Notes under the pieces: generated by a model
What the model was told of the DNA's origin: nothing
The model's input: only the letters and a program-made list of their open reading frames with translations
Databases searched by the model: none
Position numbers and translations under genes: made by a program
In this document: piece after piece, positions 5,805-64,000 of the stretch
Layout: each line of letters begins with the position of its first letter
How positions within the stretch are numbered: the first letter of the stretch is position 1
Assembly (NCBI RefSeq): GCF_002999335.1
Contig: NW_020312458.1
Location: 178,133 to 242,132 of the forward strand
Reading direction: 5' to 3'
Origin: Cyclospora cayetanensis
Taxonomy: Eukaryota; Apicomplexa; Conoidasida; Eucoccidiorida; Eimeriidae
DNA length: 64,000 nt

Positions 5805-8800
5805 GCATGTATCTCTGCTGAGCCTTCAGCAGCACGCTGCTGTTGCAGCAGGCACGCAACAGCAGCAGCAGCAACAGCAGCAGCTCCTAATGCAGTTAAC
5901 TCCCGAGGCGTCAGCAGCAGGAGCACCTGCAACAGTAGCTGCAGCAGGAGAACACCGCAGTCTGTTACTTGACCAGCAGCATGGCAGTCGCGCAGCTGCT
6001 CTTCTTGCCGCTTTGCAGAAGCAGACGTTGCTGCAGCAGCAGCAGCAGCAGCAGGATGCGGCAGGCGCGCATGCAGCCGCCTCGAGATCAGGTGTGCCTC
6101 TTTTTCGCGGAGTGGCGGCTGCCCCTAGTAGCAGCAGAGCACCAACTTCGTAAAGATTTTCTTTCACGGAGTGGTGTTTGCTGCACGAGCGAAGCAGGCT
6201 TAAAGGTTGCGCTGGGTGTTGCTGCATGCGTTGCTTTCAGTACTGGTCTTGCTGGTGCATGCGCATGCTCTTGTTTTCCGCCTTGTGTTGCTGCAGCGGC
6301 CTTATACCTGAACGCGTTGCTTCCTCAGCAGGGAGCAGCGAATCGGCAGCAGCAAGAGCAGCGTGCAGCTAGGTTGCTGCAGATGCAGCAGCAGGCAGTT
6401 GCTGCGGCGGCAGTTGCGTCCTCCTACAAGCTGCAGCAGCTGCAGCAGCTGCAGCTGCTGCAGCAGTTGCAGCAGAAGCAGCAGCAACTGCAGCAGCAGC
6501 AGCAAATAGGCGAAGCGGCTGGAGCAGCCCCCTCCCCAGCCATAGCCTCCTCGCCGTCTGCAAAAACGCACCCTTCTCCCGCCACAGCAGCGGCAGCTGC
6601 AGCTGCTACGTCGGCAGCAGCTCAGACGGTGCAGCAGCAGCTGCAGCAGCAGCAACTGCAGCAACAGCAGCAACAGCAGGAGCAGCAGGAGCAAGGTGCT
6701 CCTGTCGCGGCAGTGGACAACTGGGTTCAGGTATGGAGCTGCAAAATACAACATGTGCAACATGAGTTGCTTGAGAGAAAACACCGCAGATGCTGCCGTT
6801 CTCCTGGTCGCTTAAGAAGCGGCAGCATGCTCTGAATGCATGCATCACACATTGCAGTTTTAACGGGATATATATGCATATATACATACCAGAAAGTGTG
6901 CTTGTTTTTGAGGCAAACATGCGTATGATGCACACTTTCGGGAGTGTGTTTCTTGATCCTCTCCACGCTCGACTGGCCGCCACGACAGCCTTCGTAGGAA
7001 AATCGCAATGGGAGAGAGGGCACTTTTTTTCGTATATGTATGCGTGAATGGATCTGTGTATGTATGTATGTATGTATGTGTATATGTATCTGTGTGTATG
7101 TATGTATCTGTGTGTATGTATCTGTGTGTATGTATCTGTGTGTATGTATGTATCTGTGTGTATGTATCTTTGTGTATGTATGTATCTTTGTGTATGTATG
7201 TATCTGTGTGTATGTATGTATCTGTGTGTATGTATGTATCTCTGTGTATGTATGTATCTCTGTGTATGTATGTATCTCTGTGTGTGTATGTATCTGTGTG
7301 TATGTATCTGTGTATGTGTCTGTCTGTTTGCACGTTTTATGTGCGTGCTTTTTGCAGTGCGAAGCCTGCAGGAAGTGGCGGCGTTTGCCAGCAGCCATTG
7401 ATCCAGATTCGCTGCCTGAGACGTGGGTATGCTCGATGACGCATTGGGATAGTAGCATTACGAGCTGCTCTGTTCCAGAGGAGGACTACCGGGAGGAGCA
7501 GCAGCAGCAGCTGCTGTTGCTGCAGCAGCAGCAGTTCCCTTCGCGGGCTGAAACTGCAACTGCTGCTGACGACGAAGCAGACGCCGACTACATGCCGCAG
7601 CAGCAGGAGCCGCAGCAGCAGGCAGCGGCACAGACGGCAGTGGCTGTCAACAGGAGGCGCACGAGGAGTTCTGTGCTGGTGGCTTCTTCTTCTTCTGCAG
7701 TTGGTACCGAGATCGAGAGGGGATCTTTGCTACGACAGCAGCAGGAAGGGCTGTCGGCAGGTGTGTCTTGTGTGCCTGTTGTGTGGCATGGGGAGTTTCT
7801 TTGGAGGCGTTGTTAGACAGGGTGCTCGAGAAGCCGCTCCTTTTCTGCCTGCTTCATGCAGTGGCCTCCCCTGCACGTGTTGCGTTTTGCTGGAAGGGGG
7901 GTGTGCTGCTGCTGTTTGGCGGTGCGTCGATTGCGGATGCAGGCATGGATCTCGACTTATCGGCAGTGAACCTCTGCACAGGGGCCCCCCCCTCGCTGTC
8001 ACAGCAGGTGCTGCAGCAGCAACAGCAGCAGCTGCAGCAATTCGCCTTTGCACAGCGGGCTGTGACGGCGGACGCTTTGCCCCTTGCTGCTGCCGACTTG
8101 GGGAACGCCTTACGCAGTCAGCAGCATCCATCGGCAGCGCAAGCAGCAGCAGTAGCAGCTGCAGCGGACCTGGTAGCATCGATACCTCCTGGTGCTACAG
8201 AGTTGGTAGGCTATATATATGCAGCCTTTGTTTTGGCAGCGAAGGCGGCTCTTGTGCTGCTGTGCTGGGTTGTGTTCACTGAAAGAAGACACGCGTTCTT
8301 GCTGGCGAGGCTGTGCCTTTTTCCGGTGACTTCTAGGCCTTGTTGTTGGTGTGCTGCGGATGCTGCTGCTTACGCTGCCCGTAGGCGGTTACGCTGGTGA
8401 AGGTGCCTGTCGCTGCCAGCAGGAGTCACCCCGTCGCAGATCGCCTCATGGTATCCTGTCCAGACGGTAAGCAGGCAGGGAGCCTTGGAAACGGATCGAA
8501 GGGGCCGTGTTCATAAATTAGGCGCCTGCGGCGTGTCAAGTGTTTCTCCGTGGCATCGAGATCGAGCTGCCCGCTGCAGCGTGGGGGGAGGAAGAGGGGG
8601 CAAAGGGGGGAAAGGGAGCGGAGGGAGAGAGGGCGATCAGACACCCTCTAGAGTCTCGCGTCGTTTTGTTTGTGCGGCTTTTTTCCGGCGTCTTTTTGTA
8701 GGGCCTTCCACGACTTGTTGGGCAGCTGAGCTCCCCCACGGGACGCTTCAGCTTCGCCTTTTGGATCTCATGCGAATGAATTCGAGTTCGCGTCGGAGTG

Positions 8801-11800
8801 CAGGTCCAAGCAGCGCCGTCGAGGAGGTTGTTGCCGTCGCATGTAGCAGCAGCAGCAGTCTGTACGACCTGGACGTGCAGCAGCAGCAGCAGGCGCAGCA
8901 GGAGGGGGGTCTGAGTGGAGGCAGCAGCAGCAAGGGCCAGTCGAGGATGCCGCCTGCCAGTGGTGTAGACACATGTGTGTCGATTGATTACGCGCATGCA
9001 GTCAGATGGCCAGGAGTTGAGGCTCTAAGTGGTGCAGAAGAGGGCGACGATTTGCCTTGCGAGGCGGCTTCGTGCAGCAGCAGCGAGGATGAGATGACGC
9101 AGGGAACAACGCAGGCAGCGGCGGCAGATGACTGTCCAAATCGTTGTCTTGTTGTTGCCGGAGATCCCAACAGCCCTTCTGCTTTCCCAGTGGCTCCTGC
9201 TGCGCTGCAACCGCGCGAGCTGCAGCAAGTTGCTGCATCGCTTACGCAGGAGCTGGAAAAGCGGTGCTCCGTCCTGCGCGGGCAGATTCCCCACAAGGTC
9301 CTTAGGACGTACAGACGCATGCAAAGGCAAGATGGCGGGATGTACACGCCGGAGCAGCAGCAACGCCTGCAGCAGCTGCTGCTCGAGGAGCAGCAAATGC
9401 TCCTGCAGCAACAGCTGCAGCAGCAGAAGCGACTTATGGCGGCAGCAGCGACCCCGGCACATGTCGTCCTAGACACCCGGGAGCTATTGGGAGCTGTCTG
9501 TCTCGCGGATCCTGCAATTCAGATGCAGCAGCAGCAGCAACAACACATGCAGCAACAGCAGCAACAGCAACAGCACATGCAGCAACAGCAGCAACAACAA
9601 CAATACATGCAACAGCAACAACACATGCAACAACACATGCAACAACAACCGCAACAACAGCAACAACAGCACATGCAACAACAACAGCAAGCTCGCAAGT
9701 CTGCTTCCTCGGAAGATGGAGGCCCAAGCAGCAAGCGTCTCAGGAGAGCCCCCCCTGCAGTCGCTGCTGTTATTCCTCAATCCGAAGCCATGGATGTTGT
9801 TGCCTTAGCGGACGCTGGTGCCGCTGACAAAGCGATGGCAGGGGAGGTTGCAGAGGTGGCAACTGCTGAAGCTGCAACGCTCCTCGCGGGAGCAGAGCAG
9901 CAGCAGGCCTCGGTTGCTACAGAAGCAGCGACAGCAACAAGCAAAAGAGAGGTTGTCGAGGAGGTTTCAGAACTAGCAGAAGTGCGAGCCGCAGAAGCCT
10001 TCTCTTCTGTCGGAGCTGAAGCGAGTGGAAGCAGCGGTACTGATGGCGAGCGATGGGGGGTGGCCGTTGCCGCTGCTTCTGTGGAAGAAACTCCAGCAGA
10101 GTCTTCTCAGGGACAGAGCGAGTATGCGCTTGTGCAAGAGAGCGACTCCGCAGAAGCGGCGGCAGAGGCGGCGGCAGCAGCACCGGAAGGGGCAGCAGAT
10201 GATGGCAAGACGCTCAGCGAAGCGTTAGGCGCGGACGCTGATACTTGTCTGGCTGCAGCGGCAGGCTCAGCTCGAGCGGGTGCAGCTGAAGCAGCGGAGG
10301 TTGGTGCAGAGCCAACTAGGGAATTAGAAGAAGAGGCGACAAGCGTTTCGGGTGCAAAAGATCCTGCTGCAGCGGGGGAGGCGTCAGAATCAGCTGGAGC
10401 CAAACCAGCGACCTCCTCACCAGAGGACGCTGCACCAAGAGAATCTGGAGGGCCGAGTGCAGCGGTCGATTTTCAGGGTGGCACAGCAGCAGCGGAACTG
10501 GAAGGCAGATGTGTTGTCGCGAAAGCTGAATTAGCGGAAGCTGCTTCCGGAGCATCGGATGCGGCCGAACCCGATGCAGCAGAAGCGGCAGATCCGGAGG
10601 CAGGTGTCGTGTCGGCAGCAGAGCCTGCCTCGACGGAGTCTGCGGCAGCAGCAGCAGAGAGAAGGCTGTTGTCTGAAGCACCAGCGCCTAAGGGTGCGTT
10701 GCAGACTACCGCGTCCGCTTCCCCTGCAGGCCTACTGCCTGAATTGGCAGCGGGGGGATGCCAAGACGAGGAGGAGAAAGCAAGCGAGACAGCAGAAGCG
10801 AGGCTGCCTTCTTGCGAGCAGGGAGGAGAGGACGAGGATGACGATGGACGCGATCCGTGGGCTCCTTTGCCTCCCTCTGTCTCGGTAGAAGAGCGACAGC
10901 CTCACGACGGAGGCACCGACAGGTCGTCTCGCACTGACGGCAGCAGTCTCAGCATCAGCAGCCGCAGTGGCTCGTGGAGAGTGGAGGCCTTTGGAAGGCA
11001 TTCTAGCAACACCCCCGCAGACGCGCTTGCAGGAGGGGGGGGCTTCAGTGGCGGCGTTCCTCGCAGCAACAGAGGAGAACTGTTGCAGTCTTCTTCGAGC
11101 GCTCCTTCGGACGCCTCAAGCCGCAGCAGCAGCAGCCGCTTGAGTCAGGAAGACCGCGTCGTGAGCGGAAACGGTCGAAAAGACGCATCAAGCGTTGCCA
11201 GCAGTGCTCGCGGCAGCGGTGGGAGCAGCAGGGACCTGCGCCTTGCTGTGAGGCCGCCCCCCTCGGGAGGAGCAGGAGGCTTCACTACAGCAGCAGAACC
11301 CCCAGGCTCTCCAGATCCGTGGGTGCCTGTGCTGTCTGCAGACGTAGCAGCGTCAGCAGCAGCAGCGGCTGCTGCAGCAGGTCCTGCTGCCCCCTCTGGG
11401 AAGATGAGCGATGCCGCAGCACCGTCTCTCAATAAGCCGGGCAGCGGAGGGGGGGCTAGAGACAGTGGAAGCCTGGTATTAGGCGAGACAGGCAGCACCA
11501 GTTCCCTGCGCGCCTCGCCTCCCCGCCATCCCGGTCGCCAGCAGCAGCAAGAATATGCGAGGAACAGACGCAGCAGCCTCAACAGCCCCGAGGGAGGCTA
11601 CCGCAGTGTCTCCGTGGAGAGAAGAGACATTTCCCCACACGGCAGACACCTCGGGGGGCCCTCTCGACGCATGCACCCCCCTCGCCTGTTGCAGTGCAGG
11701 CAGCAGCCGCAGCCGCAGCGCATGCCCCCCCTGATGCATTCCAGGGGGAGGGCCCTGCTGCCGCCCATGATGCGACAGCTCCCGCCGTTGCGGGATGACA

Positions 11801-12243
11801 GGGGGCCGCCCCTGGTCTGGGGCGGGGGGCCCCCGGGGGCCCCGGGGGGCCTCCCGCCCCCCATGGGCGATCTTCGCGGGTACTGTGGCTGGAGACGCGC
11901 GGAGGAGGCCCTTGGAGGGCCTCCTCACCAGTCTGGGGAGGCGCCTGGCTGGGGTCGTGGGGGCCCCATGGGCAGCAGCAGAATGCGCGATATGCCCGAA
12001 TACAGGGGCATGCATGGATTCCCCCACAGGGGCCTCCACGACGGTTCTCCAGCTCCTTGGGAGATGAGGCGATCGCCCCCCCACAGCGTGACGGAAAGAG
12101 ACAGAAGGATGGAGGCTCCCGGGGGGGGCCCTGGTGGGGGCCCGCCGCTCTGGGAAGGAAGGGGCGACAGTCTCCTGATGAGGCACCTGAGGCGGCCTGC
12201 GTCATCCCCGGGGTATCGACACCCGAGGACCAACCCTTGGTAG
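4743..12243 (+). CDS. CW-type zinc-finger protein with long polyGln tracts
   Basis: Proposed exons are 4743-5388, 5540-6091, 6297-6730, 7358-7760, 7943-8205 and 8752-12243, in consistent phase (1,929 codons plus stop). The only recognised domain is a CW zinc finger around residues 542-592. It reads WVQCEACRKWRRLP, then PETWVCSM and SCSVPEED, with the four zinc Cys and the Trp residues of the family. The domain is split by an intron exactly before its first Cys. CW domains generally read histone H3 lysine-4 methylation, so a nuclear chromatin role is inferred. The rest is low complexity: polyGln and polyAla before the CW, an acidic Ala/Glu-rich middle, then Ser/Arg-rich and finally Pro/Gly/Met/Arg-rich C-terminal sections. 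A non-repetitive stretch (LEKRCSVLRGQIPHKVLRTY) lies near 9.25 kb. The start codon is the first in-frame ATG of exon 1; an upstream exon cannot be excluded. Confidence 0.7.
7040..7325 (+). repeat. TGTATG/TGTCTG microsatellite inside CW-gene intron 3
   Basis: Imperfect array of TGTATGTATCTGTGTG units filling most of the 627-bp intron 6731-7357. Every frame is open, creating false ORFs of Cys/Val/Tyr/Met. A clean acceptor (GCTTTTTGCAG) follows at 7347-7357. Confidence 0.9.
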
Positions 12244-55678: not shown

Positions 55679-58600
55679 ATGGCGGACATGAAGCGGAAAA
55701 TGGTGGAGGCGTCAACAGCGACTCAGTCCGATGCGTCGGAGACTACAAGTCCCTCAAGCCGGCCACTGAGTCCTCCAGTCGAAGCATTATGGAATAGGTT
55801 TTGTGGCAATCCATTCGGTACTGCATTCCAAAAGTGGGCAAAAGAAGTTCCAGATGCAGAAGCCGTGGTTTGGCTCAATGGAGAGGGGGATATTGCGGAA
55901 AGACGGACCTACAAGGAGCTGCTTGATCAAATATATACGCTGGCGGAGCACCTGGAGGACATTGGAATAAAAAGAGGAGATCGGGTGATCTTGTGCTATC
56001 CTCCAGGAATAGAATTCATCATTGCATTCTTTAGTTGCATTATTTCAGGCATCGCGGCAGTCCCCGTGTATCCTCCCGATCCCACGAAAGGAATAACGGA
56101 CATTCCTCGTTTTTGTGATATCGGAGAAAGTGCAGGAACAAAAAGAGCACTTACCTCCACGGTTTATCGCCGTGTAGCTGCTGCAATGTCGGTGGTTTCG
56201 CGGGAAAAGAGGTGGAGAGATGTGGAGTGGATCTGCACGGATACGATCAAAACAACTAGTTCGCTGAATCGCACCCCTGCGGCTCTCGATCCTCACTCCA
56301 TCGCGTTTCTTCAGGTATGCTAGGCACGTGTAAGTTGGTTTTAAAATGTTTGACGTGCATCTACTTCTGTGGGGCCCTAGTTCCAACATGATATTACTGC
56401 CAGCAGCTTGCAGCACGCCTTCACTTTTTTTGTCACCAGCGGCCTGTTTGTTGCCTCTTTTGTGCAGTTCACTTCTGGAAGTACATCTGAACCCAAAGGT
56501 GTCATGGTAACGCATTTGTCGTTGCTACACAACATGCATTTGTGCTGGAATTCCTTTGAGTTTCCAACTCACTCTGAAACCAAGGACCCTGCTGAGCAGT
56601 TTTCCACCCGCGACTATAACTTTTACGACTTGGAAGAGTTTTGGAGGAGACGACACGAGGTGTCAACGACGCGTCGAGGACACAGAGTTCGAGCATTTTC
56701 ATGGTTACCAGTCTATCACGATATGGGGTGAGCACCGCCGTTGTAGCTGGTGCAGTCTAAGGGTGTGTGTTTTCGCTCGGCGTTACGCAGGAAGCGCTTC
56801 TCTGTATTGAATATATACTTTGCGAACAACTGGTCACAGTGTCTCTAATTCAAATGGCATGCGTGTGCTGCGCCCACAGGCTTATTGGCTTCGTCTGTTG
56901 TCCATTATTCTGTGGAGCTGCTCTATATCAAATGTCGCCAATAGACTTCATCCGACGGCCGTGGGTGTGGCTTAAAGCCATGAGCCAGTACGACTGCGTC
57001 TGCAGTGCTGCCCCTAACTTCGCCTTCGGCTTAGTGACGCGAAAAATGCCTGAAAATATTTATGCTCAACTGGATCTATCCCGCGTCACCGGAATCTTAT
57101 CTGGAGCTGAGCCTGTTCGTAGACAGACAGTGGAGCAGTTCGTCGAGGTGCGCAAAGCTTCCTTCGGCCAAGAAAGCCCCTGCACCCCTCTAGGTTCGAG
57201 CGCTGCGCGCTCAGCCTGATTGATTGCGAACTGCCCACCTTACTATCTGCTGCCTCTATTGCGTGATGCACCTCTGTATTCTCAGAAATTCGGTCCGAAG
57301 GGTATCAAGCCGTCTACTGTGGCACCGGCATACGGCCTCGCCGAGCATACGCTTATCGTCACAGGCAAAGGGAACTGGCAAGCCAAGGCCAACGTACTCT
57401 ACGTTGATGCGCTCACACTGAGAGCTGAGCGCAAAGTAAAAGTTTTCACCGAGGAGGAAGCTGCTTTACGGCCTGCGGGCGAAGTTCAAGACGTAGTGAG
57501 CTGCGGCTTCCCATTCGAAGGTGTTACTGGTGAGTTTTGCCCTTTTGAGTGCCATAAAATTAGGTGGCGCGCCAAAAGGCAGTGCAAAGTAGGCAGAACC
57601 ATTTGCTCTCTGCTGTGATGCTTGCAGTAAAAATCGTGGACACCGAGACGAACAAAGAATTGCCCGAAGGGCATGTTGGGGAAATCATTGCATTCAGTGA
57701 ATCTGTGGCTCTAGGATACTTCAACAAGCCCGAGCAAACTGAGCTCGCATTTCGCGTGTCCATAATCGACTTACAGGGAAATCGCACGCCTGCTACTGGA
57801 CTTCGCACGGGAGATTGTGGGTTTTTGTACCACGGTCAACTGTATGTAACAGGACGGTTCAAGGACATTATTATCATAAGAGGACGCAATTACTATCCTC
57901 CAGATATTGAAGAGGCAGTTCTAGAGGTTCCTCAGATTCGGCCAGGGTGCGTCGCTGCTTTTGCAATTGAGGCCGATTCCAATGAAGTTTTGGGGATCGC
58001 TGCTGAGCTTCGCGTGGAGGATGGCTTGAAGGGTGTCTGGGCTCGTGTTCGCCGACAGCTCTTTGACAGGAGCAGCTACGATCAAATTGTAAAAAACATT
58101 TGCCGCGTAATTGCTACGGCTACCGGTCTGAGTGTGCATATGGTGTGGCTCCTAAAGCCTCGCAGTTTACCAAAGACCAGCAGTGGTAAGCTGAGGAGGT
58201 CTCTAGCTCGCGATAAGCTGCTGGATGGCAGCCTTGATGGCGTCCTCCACACGTACACCCACCACGTCCATCCGGTCGAAGCTTCGTCAAGCGCGGCAAG
58301 AACAGGGTGTCAGGCTCCTACCAAATCTCCTACCCAGCAGCTGTCGGAATCTGCGCACAAGGGACATGAAGAAGCAGCACAGACGCACGAGACGGTGTTG
58401 AAAACTGTCAGAGACGCAGTAATCGACGCTGCGAAAAATGTGCTAGGAGATGACGGCGAACTTCCAGACATGCAGGCCCCCTTGCATGAGCTGGGAGTGG
58501 ATTCCATTGCTGCAGTGGAACTAGCGGAGCTTGTTTCCGAAAAGTTGAACATCGATATCGAGCCGACGCTGATGTTCAACTACCCAACAATGGAGGATAT

Positions 58601-61600
58601 TATAGACTTCTTGGTACGCGAGATAGAAGGGAAAGGAGGGGAAGACGCGTTAACCATTAACGCCACCGGTTCGGAGATGACAATGGCAGTTGTAGGTGCA
58701 GCGTGCAACTTGCCAGGAGGAAGTACATCGCTCAGTTCTTTTTGGGATGCTCTTATGTGCGGCGTCGATGCAATGGTGGAGGTTCCGCGGTCCAGGTCAG
58801 CAGAGCAGCCCTTATCCAGTATATGTGTCTTTCGCGTAGCAGCGCACGTGCTTAGGCTGCAAAAGAGGCATTGCTGGCATACATTTACGCGCTGCCTAGG
58901 GTATGTGTGCTGCCTCGCTATGATGCAGGTGGGATGTAGAGGACTACTTTGACCCTGATCCCGACGCAGAAGGAAAAATGTACATCCGAGAAGGCGGTTT
59001 TATTGAAAATGCGGAGTTCTTCGACGCCTCATTTTTCAGGATATCCTTGGCCGAGGTAAGAGAGTTGGCCCCAACAGCACGTTTCTCTTTGAAAATTTGT
59101 CGTATCTTCCACATGTTCTTCTTGCAAACGCAGTGTGCACGTCTGGGGTGTATGTAGTGAGGTGGCGGCCTTGTATTTTGCGCTTGCTGGGGCACCCGCA
59201 GGCGTCGAGTATGGATCCTCAACAACGGCTCTTGCTGGAAGTCGGCTACGAGGCTCTGCACGACAGTGGCTTCGATAAGGACAGCTTGCTACGTGCAAAT
59301 ATCGGAACCTTTGTGGGATGCTGCTGCAATGAGTGGCAGCAAACATGTGCTCAGATGGGTCTGGGGATAAGCAGCTTTACAGCAACGAGCCATGCGCCCT
59401 CGATCTTATCAAACCGCCTCTCGTATACGTTGGGGATGTTAGGCCCCTCGTTGACCGTGGATACCGCGTGTTCATCTTCGTTAGTAGCGTTGCACATAGC
59501 CATTCAGGAAATCAAGGCAGGAAGCTGCTTCTCTGCTTTGGTTGCTGGTGTGAACCTCATGCTGTCACCTAACGTCACAGTTGCCTTCTGCAAGGCTCGC
59601 ATGATGGCTCCGGATGCTCGGTGCAAAACATTTGATGCCAGCGCCAATGGCTATGTCCGCGGAGAAGGCCTCGGTGCCATCGTCATAAAACCCCTGTCAG
59701 AGGCTATGAAAGAGGACAGCCGCATCATCTGTATCGTTCGTGGGACTGCAGTTAACCATGGAGGGCGAGCTGCCAGCTTAACGGCGCCTAGTGGCCCCTC
59801 GCAAGAGCGAATCATTCGAACGGCTCTACGCAATGCCAATGTGACCCCTGACGAGGTTCTATTTGTTGAAACACACGGAACAGGCACCTCCCTGGGTGAC
59901 CCCATAGAAGTGGGTGCTCTCAAATCAGTATTTAGGTCCAGCAGGGACTCACCCCTTCTTTTGGGAGCCGTCAAAACCAACATTGGACATCTTGAAGGTG
60001 CAGCAGGTATTGCAGGCTTCCTCAAGTCCGCACTCGCCCTGCGTCACAAGCAGATGCCCCCGAACCTCCATTTCAAAACGTGGAATCCACATATTGACTT
60101 GAAGGGGGCGAAGTTCATCTGCCCAGTGACTGGCCTCCCGATAACGCCCCCAAAGGGGAAGCAACGCATTGGTGGAGTCAGCTCCTTCGGATTTGGAGGA
60201 GCAAATGCGCATGCAGTCCTGCAGGAGGCGCCTCACGTGTGCGAGTTGCGGCGGCCATGCAAGGCGCAGAAGCCAACGGCTGTGTGTTTCATGTTTGGTA
60301 GTCAAGGCGTGGAGGACTTGGAAAAATGCCGCGGGCTCTATGACGGCAACCCCGTATTTGCCAAGGTTCTAAATGACTGCGGTGACATACTTAAGCGGCT
60401 AGTCAGCGTTCCGCTGCTCTCTATTCTCTTTTCTGACCAGGATACGCCAAGATCTGCGGAGAGGGCGCATGGCCAGCAACCCCAGCAGTGGCTTCGACAA
60501 ACGCGATTTGCAGAGCCCGTCCTATTCGCCTTCGAATACGCTCTTGGAAAAAGCTTGATTGCGCAGGGTGTCAAGCCGGATGCAGTGATGGGAGTTGGAG
60601 TAGGCGAGTTTGTGGCCGCTGCTATCGCGGGCGTCATGAGCTTAGAGGACGGTCTACGGGTTGCCTGCCAGCGCGCGAAGCTTGTCGAGACTTTTTTGCC
60701 ATCGGACGCCGTTGCTGTGGCCTGCAGAGCTGGCGAAAAGGACGTGGAAATGGCGATTTCTGAGGCTGGGGGTGTTGCGGGTTCCAGTTCATCTGTTGCG
60801 ATGTCTCTGATCTATGGCCAGAAGCAGCTGGTCCTGTCGGGCATACAGTCGGAGCTGGAGTCGGTGTTGATGAAGCTGGACATAGCGGGGCGCTTCAAGT
60901 ACTTGCAAGACCGTGTAAGCTTTTCTTCTCCACTTCTCTCGGATGTCATTACTCCTCTTGAGCGGATCATGAGCGGCGTGAAGCTTTCGCGGCCGTCCGT
61001 GCGAATGATTTGCGCAACGACTGGCGAGTTCTGTGATGAGCAAGTTCTAAGCGGTCACTACTGGACCCGCCACTTGACGCGGACGGTGCGATTCGATCAG
61101 TGCATCAGCAACCTCGTGTCAGCCGGGTGCAAGTTGCTCGTGGAGATAAACGGCAGGGCTGCTCTCATCAGGATGGGCCAGCAGAGTGTGGACGAAACGG
61201 CGAAGGACGTGGAGTGGGTGTTTGCGTTCCCGGCAGCTGACGAGGAGACAAGCGAAAGGCAGACAACATCCGTGCAGAAGTGCCTGTCAGTTCTGAACCG
61301 CATTGGTGAGCAGCTAGAGATGGAGCATGGCCTGCACGGCCACGACGAGCTGCTCTATCACAGAAAGCCGATCCCCTGGGTGCAGATCCCGCATCCTTTT
61401 GTGGGGAAACATCGAGAACTTGGGGTCGGGGAGTTCTTATTCGAAACCTCGTTTCCTCGCCGGGCAGTGCCGCTATTCGCCGATCACATGGTCAATGGAA
61501 AAGCCATGATGCCAGGCATGGGGATGGCAGAGATTGTAGCGAGTGCTGCCTTCGCACTGGACCTGAAAACGGCCTCTGGGGCGGTCGCTCTTGAGAATGT

Positions 61601-64000
61601 ATTCTTTGAGAGGCCCATGATGATTGGTTCCCAGCGTGTGACGTACGAGTTCAACACGCGAACAGGAACACACACTTGTGGCAGGCGCAGTCCACGCACA
61701 GTGCGAACGCCGCGAAGAGTCAATGACGCTTATGTACGGAGGCCTCGTGCTGATAGCGATTCGCGGGGTCTGTCGACCCCTGGTCATGCCAGCCCGACGC
61801 TTGCGCCCAGTGCTTGGCTTGTTTCGCCTTCGAGCAGCAAGGCCAGCACCCCGAAACTGGCTTCCTCCGAGCCTAAATCGAGAGACAACAGGCTGAAAGT
61901 TGAACTCGAAGAGGTCTCCCAGTCCCTTCTGTCGAATCGGGGAGCTTTGCCCGATGATCACGTTGTTCCCCAAGATCTCGAACTCACGATTCGCTGCCAT
62001 ATCATGAAAAACCTGGGGGTCGAGCTACGCAGCGTCTGGGATGATGAAACCAGTGTCCACTGCAGCGCGAGCATTGTTCTTAGCGAGCAGCAGAAGGAGG
62101 AAACACTCCCGTCTTTGAAAGAGCTCCAGGAAAGGTGCAACCAGCCAGTTTCAGTTCCGCAGCTGTACGAGTCCTTGTTCGACTTAGGATTGCAGTACGG
62201 GCCTCGCTTTCGCTCTGTCAATCATATTTCGCGGTCTGAATCCGAAGCTCTCGCTCGCCTCATGCTTCCTGAAGGCTGCAAACAGGATTCCTTCGAAAGC
62301 GGCTTTTTGGTGCATCCCGCGCTTCTTGACGGCGCCCTTCATGTGAGCTGCTTAGTAGGATATCTGCAAAAAGTTGTGTGTCATTGTTTGTTGGTTGCGG
62401 GGGACAACAAGCCAAGAGCCTTTTGTTGCTGGGCAAGAGGTGCTGGCAGTCCCTTACTTAGCTTCCCATAAATTTATACCCGGGTGTTTCTGCATGCGCC
62501 TTTGCAGGTTGCGGCGTCGCTCATTGGGAGGCACGCTTCCCGCGCGCACGTCTCGATGGTTCCCGTAGGGGCAGGCCGCATTTTGCTCCGGAAGCTGGAG
62601 GGGAAGGCGGGATGCTGGGCCCATGTAGAGCTCCTCGAATGCCGTTCGCGCTCAGCGATGGTGAATGTCAGGCTGTTCGACGACAGTTGGCAGGTGGCAG
62701 CCTCCTTGGAAAAGGTTTACCTGAGAAATGTGGATATTGGGGGGAGCGTTGGCGCCAGCATTCCTAGAGATCTCATTTGGAAGGTCAAGTGGGAGAAGCG
62801 AGCCGAGTTGACCGCACAGCCGCAAGACTTCGTCGCCGGAAAAGGGCCCGTATTAGTCATTGGAGGCAGTCTTCAGCTCATGGAAGCGCTTTCGAATTCA
62901 CTTGGAGGCGAGGATTTCGGCAGAGTGCTGAGTGTAGAGGACATCCCCTCGACCAGGGCAGACGTGCAAGAGCTCCTCGCAAGTGGTAACTGGAGGGCGA
63001 TCGCCTTTGTGGAGGCCTTGACGGCTGACGAGTATGCAGCCCTCGACGTTCCCCATGCAGCTATCCGTCTTCTCCAAGCCTACTCTGCTCTGCTAAGCAA
63101 TGGCTCCAACATGCCTCCCGTCTGGCTCTTCACCAGCGGCATCATGGATTCGCCGCAAGAGGAAGCACAAACTCCATCCCCGCCAGATCTGCCTGCCCAT
63201 GCCGGCCTTTGGGGGCTGGCGAAGGCAGCGCGGCTGGAAATAGGTGCCTCTACGGGCACGACAACGCAAATCGGGTGTCTGGATATTGAACAGCTGGAAA
63301 AAGATGACGATGTAGCGAAGGCCATTGTGACGTTCTTGCGTTCAAGCATGGCAACCTCAGACGAAAGCGAGCTGATGCTGCGGGGCAACACGCTGTACGC
63401 AGCACGGATTGAAAAAAGCGATTTAGCCGTACGGGGGGCCCTCGAATTGTACATGCCGGAGAGAGGGGCAATTTCGAACTTGGTGGTGAGGCCGCAAGCT
63501 TTCGCAGCGCGGGTGCCGCCTGCATACAACCAAGTTGAAGTGCGTGTAAGGGCCGTTGGGCTCAATTTCCGGGATGTTCTCAACGTCATGGATTTATATC
63601 CTGGCGATCCAGGGCCCCCTGGCGCAGACTTCGCCGGCACTGTGGTGGCTGTTGGCGATGACGTCGAACATGTTCGTGTAGGAGATCGCGTTTACGGCAT
63701 TGCTCCGGGGGCGCTGCGGACTTATGCAACAACAGACGCAAACCTTGTCCGCCGCGCTCCGTCTTCGCTTGGCTTTGAGGCTTCCGCAGCACTCCCAGTA
63801 GTTGCGGCTACTGTCGAGCACGCCCTTGGAGATGTGGCGCAAGTCAGGCCTGGCGCCAAGGTTCTTATTCATGCCGCAACGGGAGGGGTCGGCTTGATTG
63901 CCATTCAGCATTGCCAGCGCGTAGGCGCCACTGTCTATGCAACTTGCAGTGGGGGGCCAAAGGAAGCCTACTTGAAATCTCTTGGGATTCAGTACATTAC
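55679..64000 (+). CDS. Type I fatty acid/polyketide synthase, 5' part (FAAL-ACP-KS-AT-DH-psiKR-ER)
   Basis: Exons are 55679-56314, 56468-56727, 56880-57147, 57286-57529, 57628-58795, 58929-59055, 59202-62342 and 62508 to beyond the window. The loading fatty acyl-AMP ligase (to about 58.27 kb) has FTSGSTSEPKGVMVTH, PAYGLAEHTL, RGRNYYPPDIE and LPKTSSGKLRR. The ACP has GVDSIAAVEL with the phosphopantetheine Ser. The ketosynthase (58.68-60.23 kb) has Cys in DTACSSS and His in HGTGTSLGDP and NIGHLEGAAG. The acyltransferase (60.26-61.3 kb) reads GVGVGE instead of GHSxGE. The dehydratase (61.35-62.4 kb) keeps His in FADHMVNGK and Asp in HPALLDGALH. A non-catalytic KR-like region precedes the enoyl reductase (from 63.45 kb; HAATGGVGLIAIQ binds NADPH). 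Related giant synthases in Cryptosporidium and Toxoplasma elongate fatty acids in modules. The start ATG is the first in an otherwise open frame. Confidence 0.96.

What the first reader, a model, noticed from the sequence alone, without database searches (positions are those of the whole stretch)
60260..61330. Acyltransferase domain of the synthase has lost both catalytic residues
In active AT domains the nucleophile lies in GHSxGE and the partner His in an AFHS motif. Here the aligned positions (60591-60608 and about 60915-60938) read GVGVGE and VSFSSPLL, so Ser is replaced by Gly and His by Ser. The FxGQGxQ entry motif is also altered (FMFGSQGVED). The reading frame is otherwise intact over 3 kb, so this is a preserved scaffold rather than a decaying gene. 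The first module, which has intact KS and DH, would need its extender unit loaded by another module's AT or by a free malonyl transferase.
Basis: partly seen in the sequence, partly recalled or inferred. Interest (0 to 1): 0.8.

Follow-up and report, generated by a model that had tools for sequence, protein, structure and literature searches.

The report
Conserved dead acyltransferase in parasite synthase
A giant fatty-acid-building enzyme of the parasite Cyclospora carries a loading domain that has lost its catalytic residues, and its relatives keep the same dead domain intact, so the first module must get its building blocks some other way.

Summary
Confirmed and extended. The window is Cyclospora cayetanensis; the gene is a type I fatty acid synthase (AL-ACP-KS-AT-DH-ER), cut by the contig end at 64000. 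A second record is identical there. The loss is inherited: six of six module-1 ATs found (Cyclospora, Eimeria maxima, Cystoisospora suis, Toxoplasma gondii, Cardiosporidium cionae, one unnamed metagenome protein) have Ser to Gly, GH to GV and Asn to Tyr; the His is Ser, Thr or Gln. They form one clade (100/97). Background: 703 of 716 AT hits keep Ser. The fold is predicted intact, and AT1 is as conserved between C. suis and T. gondii as AT2 (83.1 v 84.4%). Module-2 AT is intact in three of three proteins that show it; C. suis module 3 has no AT. Best explanation: AT1 is a retained pseudo-AT and ACP1 is charged by AT2 of the same synthase. The route is untested, and module 2 was not found in the Cyclospora assembly.

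The parts
55679..64000 (+). type I fatty acid synthase gene, 5' part (exons 55679-56314, 56468-56727, 56880-57147, 57286-57529, 57628-58795, 58929-59055, 59202-62342, 62508-64000; runs off the contig)
   Evidence: 2445 codons, no stop, GT/AG at all seven introns; contig ends here; 100% match over the AT to a named Cyclospora cayetanensis protein
55679..58250 (+). acyl ligase (AL) loading domain
   Evidence: 55% identical to T. gondii FAS AL, 49% to Cardiosporidium, 44% to P0126
58416..58613 (+). loading acyl carrier protein (ELGVDSI)
   Evidence: PF00550, 51.1 bits; motif
58680..60235 (+). module-1 ketosynthase, motifs intact (DTACSSS, HGTGT, NIGH)
   Evidence: Pfam, motifs, KS1 clade 99/98
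60282..61223 (+). module-1 acyltransferase domain (AT1), catalytic pair lost
60591..60608 (+). GVGVGE: nucleophile-elbow motif, Ser to Gly (60597-60599), His to Val (60594-60596)
   Evidence: alignment with active ATs
60672..60674 (+). malonyl-carboxylate Arg, kept
   Evidence: column table
60813..60815 (+). Asn of the NGP motif replaced by Tyr, invariant in six of six AT1
   Evidence: column table
60915..60938 (+). VSFSSPLL: AFHS motif, catalytic His to Ser (60924-60926)
   Evidence: alignment
61416..62768 (+). dehydratase, both motifs present (DHMVNGKAMMPG, HPALLDGAL); holds an intron, 62343-62507
   Evidence: Pfam PF21089 and PF14765, motifs
63396..64000 (+). enoyl reductase, N-terminal part, cut by the contig end
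   Evidence: 67-69% identical to T. gondii and C. suis ER1, 90% to E. maxima; no near copy found in the assembly

Best explanation
AT1 is a true AT-family domain that lost its Ser-His catalytic pair in a common ancestor of coccidia and Cardiosporidium and has been kept since as a non-catalytic part of module 1 of the apicomplexan type I FAS. Shown: the loss, its sharing by descent, the intact predicted fold, the constraint in one species pair, and the catalytic motifs in the rest of module 1. Inferred: because KS1, DH1, ER1, KR1 and ACP1 keep their motifs, module 1 still extends the acyl chain, so malonyl must reach ACP1 from elsewhere; the likeliest donor is the one active AT seen in the same protein, AT2, which would also serve the AT-less module 3. 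AT1 itself would act as a structural or docking body beside KS1.
For: Ser to Gly, His to Val and Asn to Tyr in six of six AT1, against none of eight comparison ATs in the same table (three AT2, the C77 AT, four from the metagenome PKSs P0123 and P0199). AT1 clade 100/97, AT2 clade 98/91; branching inside AT1 follows the species. C. suis-T. gondii identity AT1 83.1%, AT2 84.4%. Fold kept. Module-2 AT intact in three of three proteins that show it. Module 3 of C. suis goes straight from KS to DH, so some AT already has to serve a module that has none. Module-1 KS, DH, ER, KR and ACP motifs present in T. gondii. A second Cyclospora record is identical over the AT.
Against: No loading assay. No Cyclospora or Eimeria module 2 was found: three AT matches in the genome (C335, C77, FabD-like C347) and one DH match, so an active FAS AT in these two is assumed from relatives. 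Cardiosporidium passes from a module-1 front to a module-3-type KS with no second AT in the 4045 residues available: if real, AT2 cannot be the donor there; it may be an assembly collapse. Module-1 DH is less alike between C. suis and T. gondii (65.0%) than module-2 DH (79.4%), though the stretch compared includes a long variable part. The second DH motif of module 1 was not matched by my pattern in Cardiosporidium and P0126. The KS-AT linker domain is missing in these synthases, so a bacterial-style KS-AT platform role cannot simply be assumed. My KS-AT didomain model failed (pLDDT 35.3).
Confidence: 0.62

Rival explanations
1. AT1 is dead but ACP1 is loaded without AT2: by self-malonylation of the carrier protein, by the AT of the separate C77 synthase, or by a free malonyl transferase.
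For: The C77 AT keeps GHSLGE and AFHS and is the only intact type I AT found in the Cyclospora assembly; a FabD-like gene is present (C347). Self-acylating carrier proteins in a T. gondii PKS are recalled from the literature (Keeler and others 2023), not seen.
Against: The C77 AT is only 25% identical to AT1 and belongs to another synthase; FabD is expected in the apicoplast (recalled); three of three relatives that show module 2 carry an active-looking AT in the same protein.
Confidence: 0.25
2. Module 1 no longer extends the chain; the dead AT marks a pass-through module.
For: Without malonyl-ACP1 no condensation is possible (family knowledge). Module-1 DH is the least alike of the ten domains compared between C. 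suis and T. gondii, 65.0%. In the irumamycin PKS an inactive AT was taken to mean that the neighbouring module is used twice (PMC11672594, passages).
Against: KS1, DH1, ER1, KR1 and ACP1 keep catalytic motifs in T. gondii and most in the others, with module-1 ER 81.5%, KR 80.1% and ACP 94.4% identical between C. suis and T. gondii; an idle module should lose them.
Confidence: 0.08
3. AT1 keeps some activity by a non-canonical route, for example attack of water or of the ACP thiol on bound malonyl-CoA.
For: Arg kept in five of six AT1 (Lys in the sixth), the Glu of the elbow motif in six of six, Gln in three of six.
Against: No His inside the fold is conserved across the six AT1; the only invariant His, 1632, lies in the AT-DH linker. 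In a thraustochytrid AT-like domain, changing Ser or His to Ala almost abolished activity (PMC8003026: abstract and passages).
Confidence: 0.05
4. Sequencing or assembly error, or a decaying pseudogene.
For: A contig end is near.
Against: Identical in a second record from another contig, same state in Eimeria at 85% identity, six of six relatives; open frame.
Confidence: 0.01

Closest known systems
T. gondii and C. suis type I FAS (P0122, P0121; both partial)
   Same: orthologous module 1 with the same dead AT
   Different: their records also show module 2 with an intact AT; Cyclospora's was not found in the assembly
Cryptosporidium parvum CpFAS1 (PMC2995488; passages, abstract among them)
   Same: AL-ACP loading unit, then KS-AT-DH-ER-KR-ACP modules and a C-terminal reductase; here AL-ACP-KS-AT-DH-ER is seen, and a KR-ACP-reductase end lies at the start of contig C117
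   Different: CpFAS1 is described with a complete set of enzymes in each of three modules; whether its first AT is dead was not tested here. In the coccidian type AT1 is dead and, in C. suis, module 3 has no AT
TgPKS2 AT3, a non-functional AT in another T. gondii synthase (D'Ambrosio 2022; title seen in a reference list; content recalled)
   Same: an inactive AT kept inside an apicomplexan megasynthase
   Different: a different gene and position; recalled as governed by a single residue, whereas here both catalytic residues are gone
AT-less and trans-AT PKS modules of algae and chromerids (PMC4661987 abstract and passages; PMC7464705 passages)
   Same: modules that must receive extender units from an AT outside the module
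   Different: there the AT is absent; here it is present, folded by prediction, and dead
Irumamycin PKS module 12 (PMC11672594, passages)
   Same: an AT described as inactive inside a cis-AT module
   Different: bacterial, one case; read there as repeated use of the module before it
Thraustochytrid PUFA-synthase AT-like domain (PMC8003026, abstract and passages)
   Same: an AT-fold domain that is not the malonyl loader
   Different: it keeps Ser and His and acts as a thioesterase
CurL KS-AT didomain, PDB 4mz0
   Different: its AT has GHSVGE and AFHS (alignment, where it reads SVGE and AFHS); apicomplexan KS-AT junctions lack the linker stretch found in other PKSs

Membership tests
AT (PF00698) domain family | sequence profile match | tested here: met
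   91.1 bits v cut-off 32.7
AT (PF00698) domain family | AT fold | tested here: met
functional malonyl/acyl transferase | nucleophile Ser in GHSxGE | tested here: not met
   GVGVGE
functional malonyl/acyl transferase | catalytic His in AFHS | tested here: not met
   SFSS; no other His inside the fold conserved in the six AT1
functional malonyl/acyl transferase | oxyanion Gln and carboxylate Arg (roles recalled) | tested here: met
   both present in Cyclospora; Gln in three of six AT1, Arg in five of six
functional malonyl/acyl transferase | measurable acyl transfer | not testable with these tools
   needs protein
apicomplexan type I FAS (CpFAS1 type) | AL-ACP loading unit followed by KS-AT-DH-ER | tested here: met
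apicomplexan type I FAS (CpFAS1 type) | KR-ACP and terminal reductase in the same protein | tested here: inconclusive
   present at the start of contig C117; physical link to C335 not shown
apicomplexan type I FAS (CpFAS1 type) | orthology with coccidian FAS module 1 | tested here: met
   KS1 clade 99/98, AT1 clade 100/97
trans-AT synthase | module without its own working AT | tested here: met
   AT1 lacks both catalytic residues; by sequence only
trans-AT synthase | free-standing AT that loads the module | tested here: inconclusive
   a FabD-like gene exists (C347); no loading evidence

The most novel reading that the evidence does not exclude
AT1 is a pseudo-enzyme with a new positive function under selection, marked by the invariant Val-Gly-Tyr signature: a docking body that brings ACP1 to AT2 of the same chain, or a malonyl/acyl-CoA sensor that uses the kept Arg, so that a single AT feeds a whole multi-module fatty acid synthase while a sister module discarded its AT altogether.
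Probability: 0.3. Interest if true: 0.72.

Novelty: new variant of a known kind. Interest (0 to 1): 0.52.

Why it matters
Module 1 of the coccidian type I FAS looks complete by domain order, but the data say it cannot load its own extender unit by the usual chemistry, in parasites of people (Cyclospora, Toxoplasma) and of livestock (Eimeria, Cystoisospora) alike. Models of what this synthase makes, and assays that test modules one at a time, then need an outside loader. The same protein family shows three states side by side: dead AT (module 1), intact AT (module 2), no AT (module 3 of C. suis), which makes AT sharing and the retention of a pseudo-enzyme directly testable.

Tried and rejected
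Sequencing error: rejected (second record identical, Eimeria same). Decaying gene: rejected. A substitute Ser-His pair: no His inside the AT1 fold is conserved in the six; the pocket geometry itself was not measured, since the tools gave no coordinates.

Single-module synthase in Cyclospora (C335 joined to C117, nothing between): not supported and not excluded. C117's KR-ACP is 45-49% identical to four module-1 KR-ACPs, while C. suis and P0126 module 1 share 59%, so it is probably from another module; the tree there is poorly resolved (3 of 17 inner branches starred). C335 and the Eimeria record both stop in or just after ER1, and ER copies are unusually alike between modules (C. suis ER1-ER2 78%, against 57% for its KS2-KS3), which suggests repeat-broken assembly; but no near copy of this ER was found in the assembly, so this stays a guess.

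Cardiosporidium having really lost module 2: open. Its first KR goes with C. suis module-2 KR (61%, 86/92) and its second KS with the AT-less KS3 (99/95): a deletion between modules or an assembly collapse would both look so.

KS-AT didomain model from five rows: failed, pLDDT 35.3, discarded. Papers: two look-ups for the D'Ambrosio 2022 paper were not held; the ten searches showed no listing that reports a dead AT in coccidian FAS module 1; I saw titles, starts of abstracts and term counts of a held open-licence library only. No DNA of the relatives was held, so no dN/dS. PMC6334511 (outline) and PMC9889270 (passages) were opened and gave nothing used here.

Full report
Identity and setting. 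The window is bases 178133-242132 of contig C335 of a 43.2 Mb genome in 392 contigs, and the contig ends where the window ends. A search with the synthase returned a 100% match over the AT region, named as a Cyclospora cayetanensis protein of 2394 residues ('l-aminoadipate-semialdehyde dehydrogenase large', a misnomer). My exon model has eight exons from 55679, GT/AG borders at all seven introns and 2445 open codons. The order is AL, ACP, KS, AT, DH, ER, and then the contig stops inside ER.

The observation. GVGVGE lies at 60591-60608 and VSFSSPLL at 60915-60938, and both align with GHSxGE and AFHS of active ATs. So Ser is Gly and His is Ser. The Gln of the entry motif is in fact kept, as is the malonyl-binding Arg (roles recalled). 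Two more changes belong to the picture: His to Val just before the nucleophile, and Asn to Tyr in the NGP motif.

Is it real and more than chance? The state is identical in the second Cyclospora record, whose longest source contig is 33,212 bases and so differs from C335, though I cannot show that its reads are independent. Eimeria maxima, 85% identical over the AT, has GVGVGE and GFSSPLL. I counted AT hits (alignments of 230 columns or more to one AT of P0123) in the 310 proteins listed by the three searches: of 716 hits 703 have Ser, 11 Gly, and two were not aligned at that place; 706 have His at the partner site. Six of the 11 Gly are this family: P0001, P0002, P0121, P0122, P0126, P0210. 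The other five lie in four unnamed PKS proteins (P0167, P0203, P0245, P0191 twice); two of those, P0167 and P0203, lack the His as well, so a double loss is rare but not unique. The sample is biased towards relatives of the query and holds near copies.

Shared by descent. The module-1 ATs of Cystoisospora suis and Toxoplasma gondii read GVGLGE with Thr for His; Cardiosporidium cionae reads GVGVGE with Ser; P0126, a metagenome protein of unknown organism, reads GVGAGE with Gln. A maximum-likelihood tree of 48 domains (14 chosen, 30 drawn at random from the hits, four added because they have Gly) puts the six in one clade (100/97), with P0126 outermost, then Cardiosporidium, then the two coccidian pairs; the three AT2 form their own clade (98/91). 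The AT of the other Cyclospora synthase (C77) is drawn outside both, but that fork is weak (89/48). Taxonomy places Cardiosporidium in Nephromycida and Cyclospora in Coccidia. Hence, most simply, one loss of Ser and of the adjoining His, followed by different fates of the catalytic His.

Rest of the module. In T. gondii module 1, KS Cys-His-His, both DH motifs, ER and KR nucleotide motifs, the KR Ser-Tyr-Asn set and the ACP serine are present. In C. suis the KS1 Cys lies before the start of the partial record. In Cardiosporidium and P0126 the second DH motif was not matched by my pattern; I did not follow that up. In Cyclospora the motifs up to ER are present.

Who loads ACP1? In T. gondii, C. 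suis and P0126 module 2 has an AT with GHSLGE and AFHS. In C. suis module 3 runs straight from KS to DH with no AT, so some AT already serves a module that has none. KS trees show three module classes: KS1 (99/98), KS2 (95/92), and the AT-less KS3 of C. suis together with the second KS of Cardiosporidium (99/95). Sharing of AT2 is the simplest reading. It is inference.

What the Cyclospora genome shows. Three AT matches: this one, an intact one in the C77 synthase, and a FabD-like one in C347. KS matches lie in C335, C77, C360 and C1, and DH (PF14765) in C335 only. The tool calls such counts lower bounds. The start of contig C117 carries a KR end, an ACP and a thioester reductase, probably the 3' end of this gene; the link is not shown. 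No module 2 was found. The gene may hold one in the gap, or not.

Known and new. Modules without AT in algal and chromerid synthases, and displacement of ATs in trans in algae, are in print (PMC4661987 abstract and passages; PMC7464705 passages). CpFAS1 is described with a complete set of enzymes in each of three modules (PMC2995488 passages). An inactive AT in one irumamycin module is in print (PMC11672594 passages). A non-functional AT in TgPKS2 is recalled (title of the paper seen). A dead AT kept in module 1 of the FAS across apicomplexans did not appear in my ten paper searches, which cover only a held open-licence library. The Cyclospora genome paper lists FAS I as present (PMC4851813, passages).

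Verdict. The best reading is a conserved pseudo-AT with loading from another AT, most likely AT2. My odds: dead as a Ser-His transferase about 0.95; ancestral and retained about 0.9; AT2 as loader about 0.6.

Noticed in passing
window 60235-60282; P0001, P0002, P0121, P0122, P0126, P0210: KS-to-AT spacing is 23-31 residues in eight of eight junctions matched by my two patterns in these synthases, against 65-210 (median 109) in 411 junctions of other fetched PKSs: the KS-AT linker domain is missing, also before the intact AT2.
   Followed up: partly
G000:C77:51523-55743 (L006:623-4843, minus strand): The second synthase carries a KS with DTATSSG, catalytic Cys to Thr, followed by ACP, an intact KS and an intact AT; a reductase match lies downstream.
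   Followed up: no
G000:C360:141652-148601 (L022): A third synthase with ACP, KS (DAACASG) and an ER-like stretch; no AT match on this contig.
   Followed up: no
window 63396-64000; P0121, P0122: ER domains are more alike between modules (78% for C. suis ER1-ER2) than KS domains (57% for its KS2-KS3), as if homogenised; the Cyclospora and Eimeria records both stop in or just after ER1.
   Followed up: partly
P0210 (Cardiosporidium cionae): Module-1 front joined to a module-2-like KR-ACP and then an AT-less module-3-type KS: real deletion of the module with the intact AT, or assembly collapse.
   Followed up: partly
window 57148-57285; P0001: The public protein model reads into this intron and skips the AL stretch KFGPKGIKPSTVAPAYGLAEHTLIVTG, which my model has and the Eimeria protein has in similar form.
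   Followed up: partly
window 61716-62078: About 120 residues of basic, Ser/Pro-rich sequence between the two Pfam halves of the DH domain, 79% identical in Eimeria.
   Followed up: no
window 8401-12243: A 1280-codon open frame with no Pfam match at 1e-5.
   Followed up: no
P0126: A metagenome protein of 5181 residues from a 22 kb contig, organism unknown, that roots the AT1 and KS1 clades and has Gln for the catalytic His and Lys for the Arg.
   Followed up: partly
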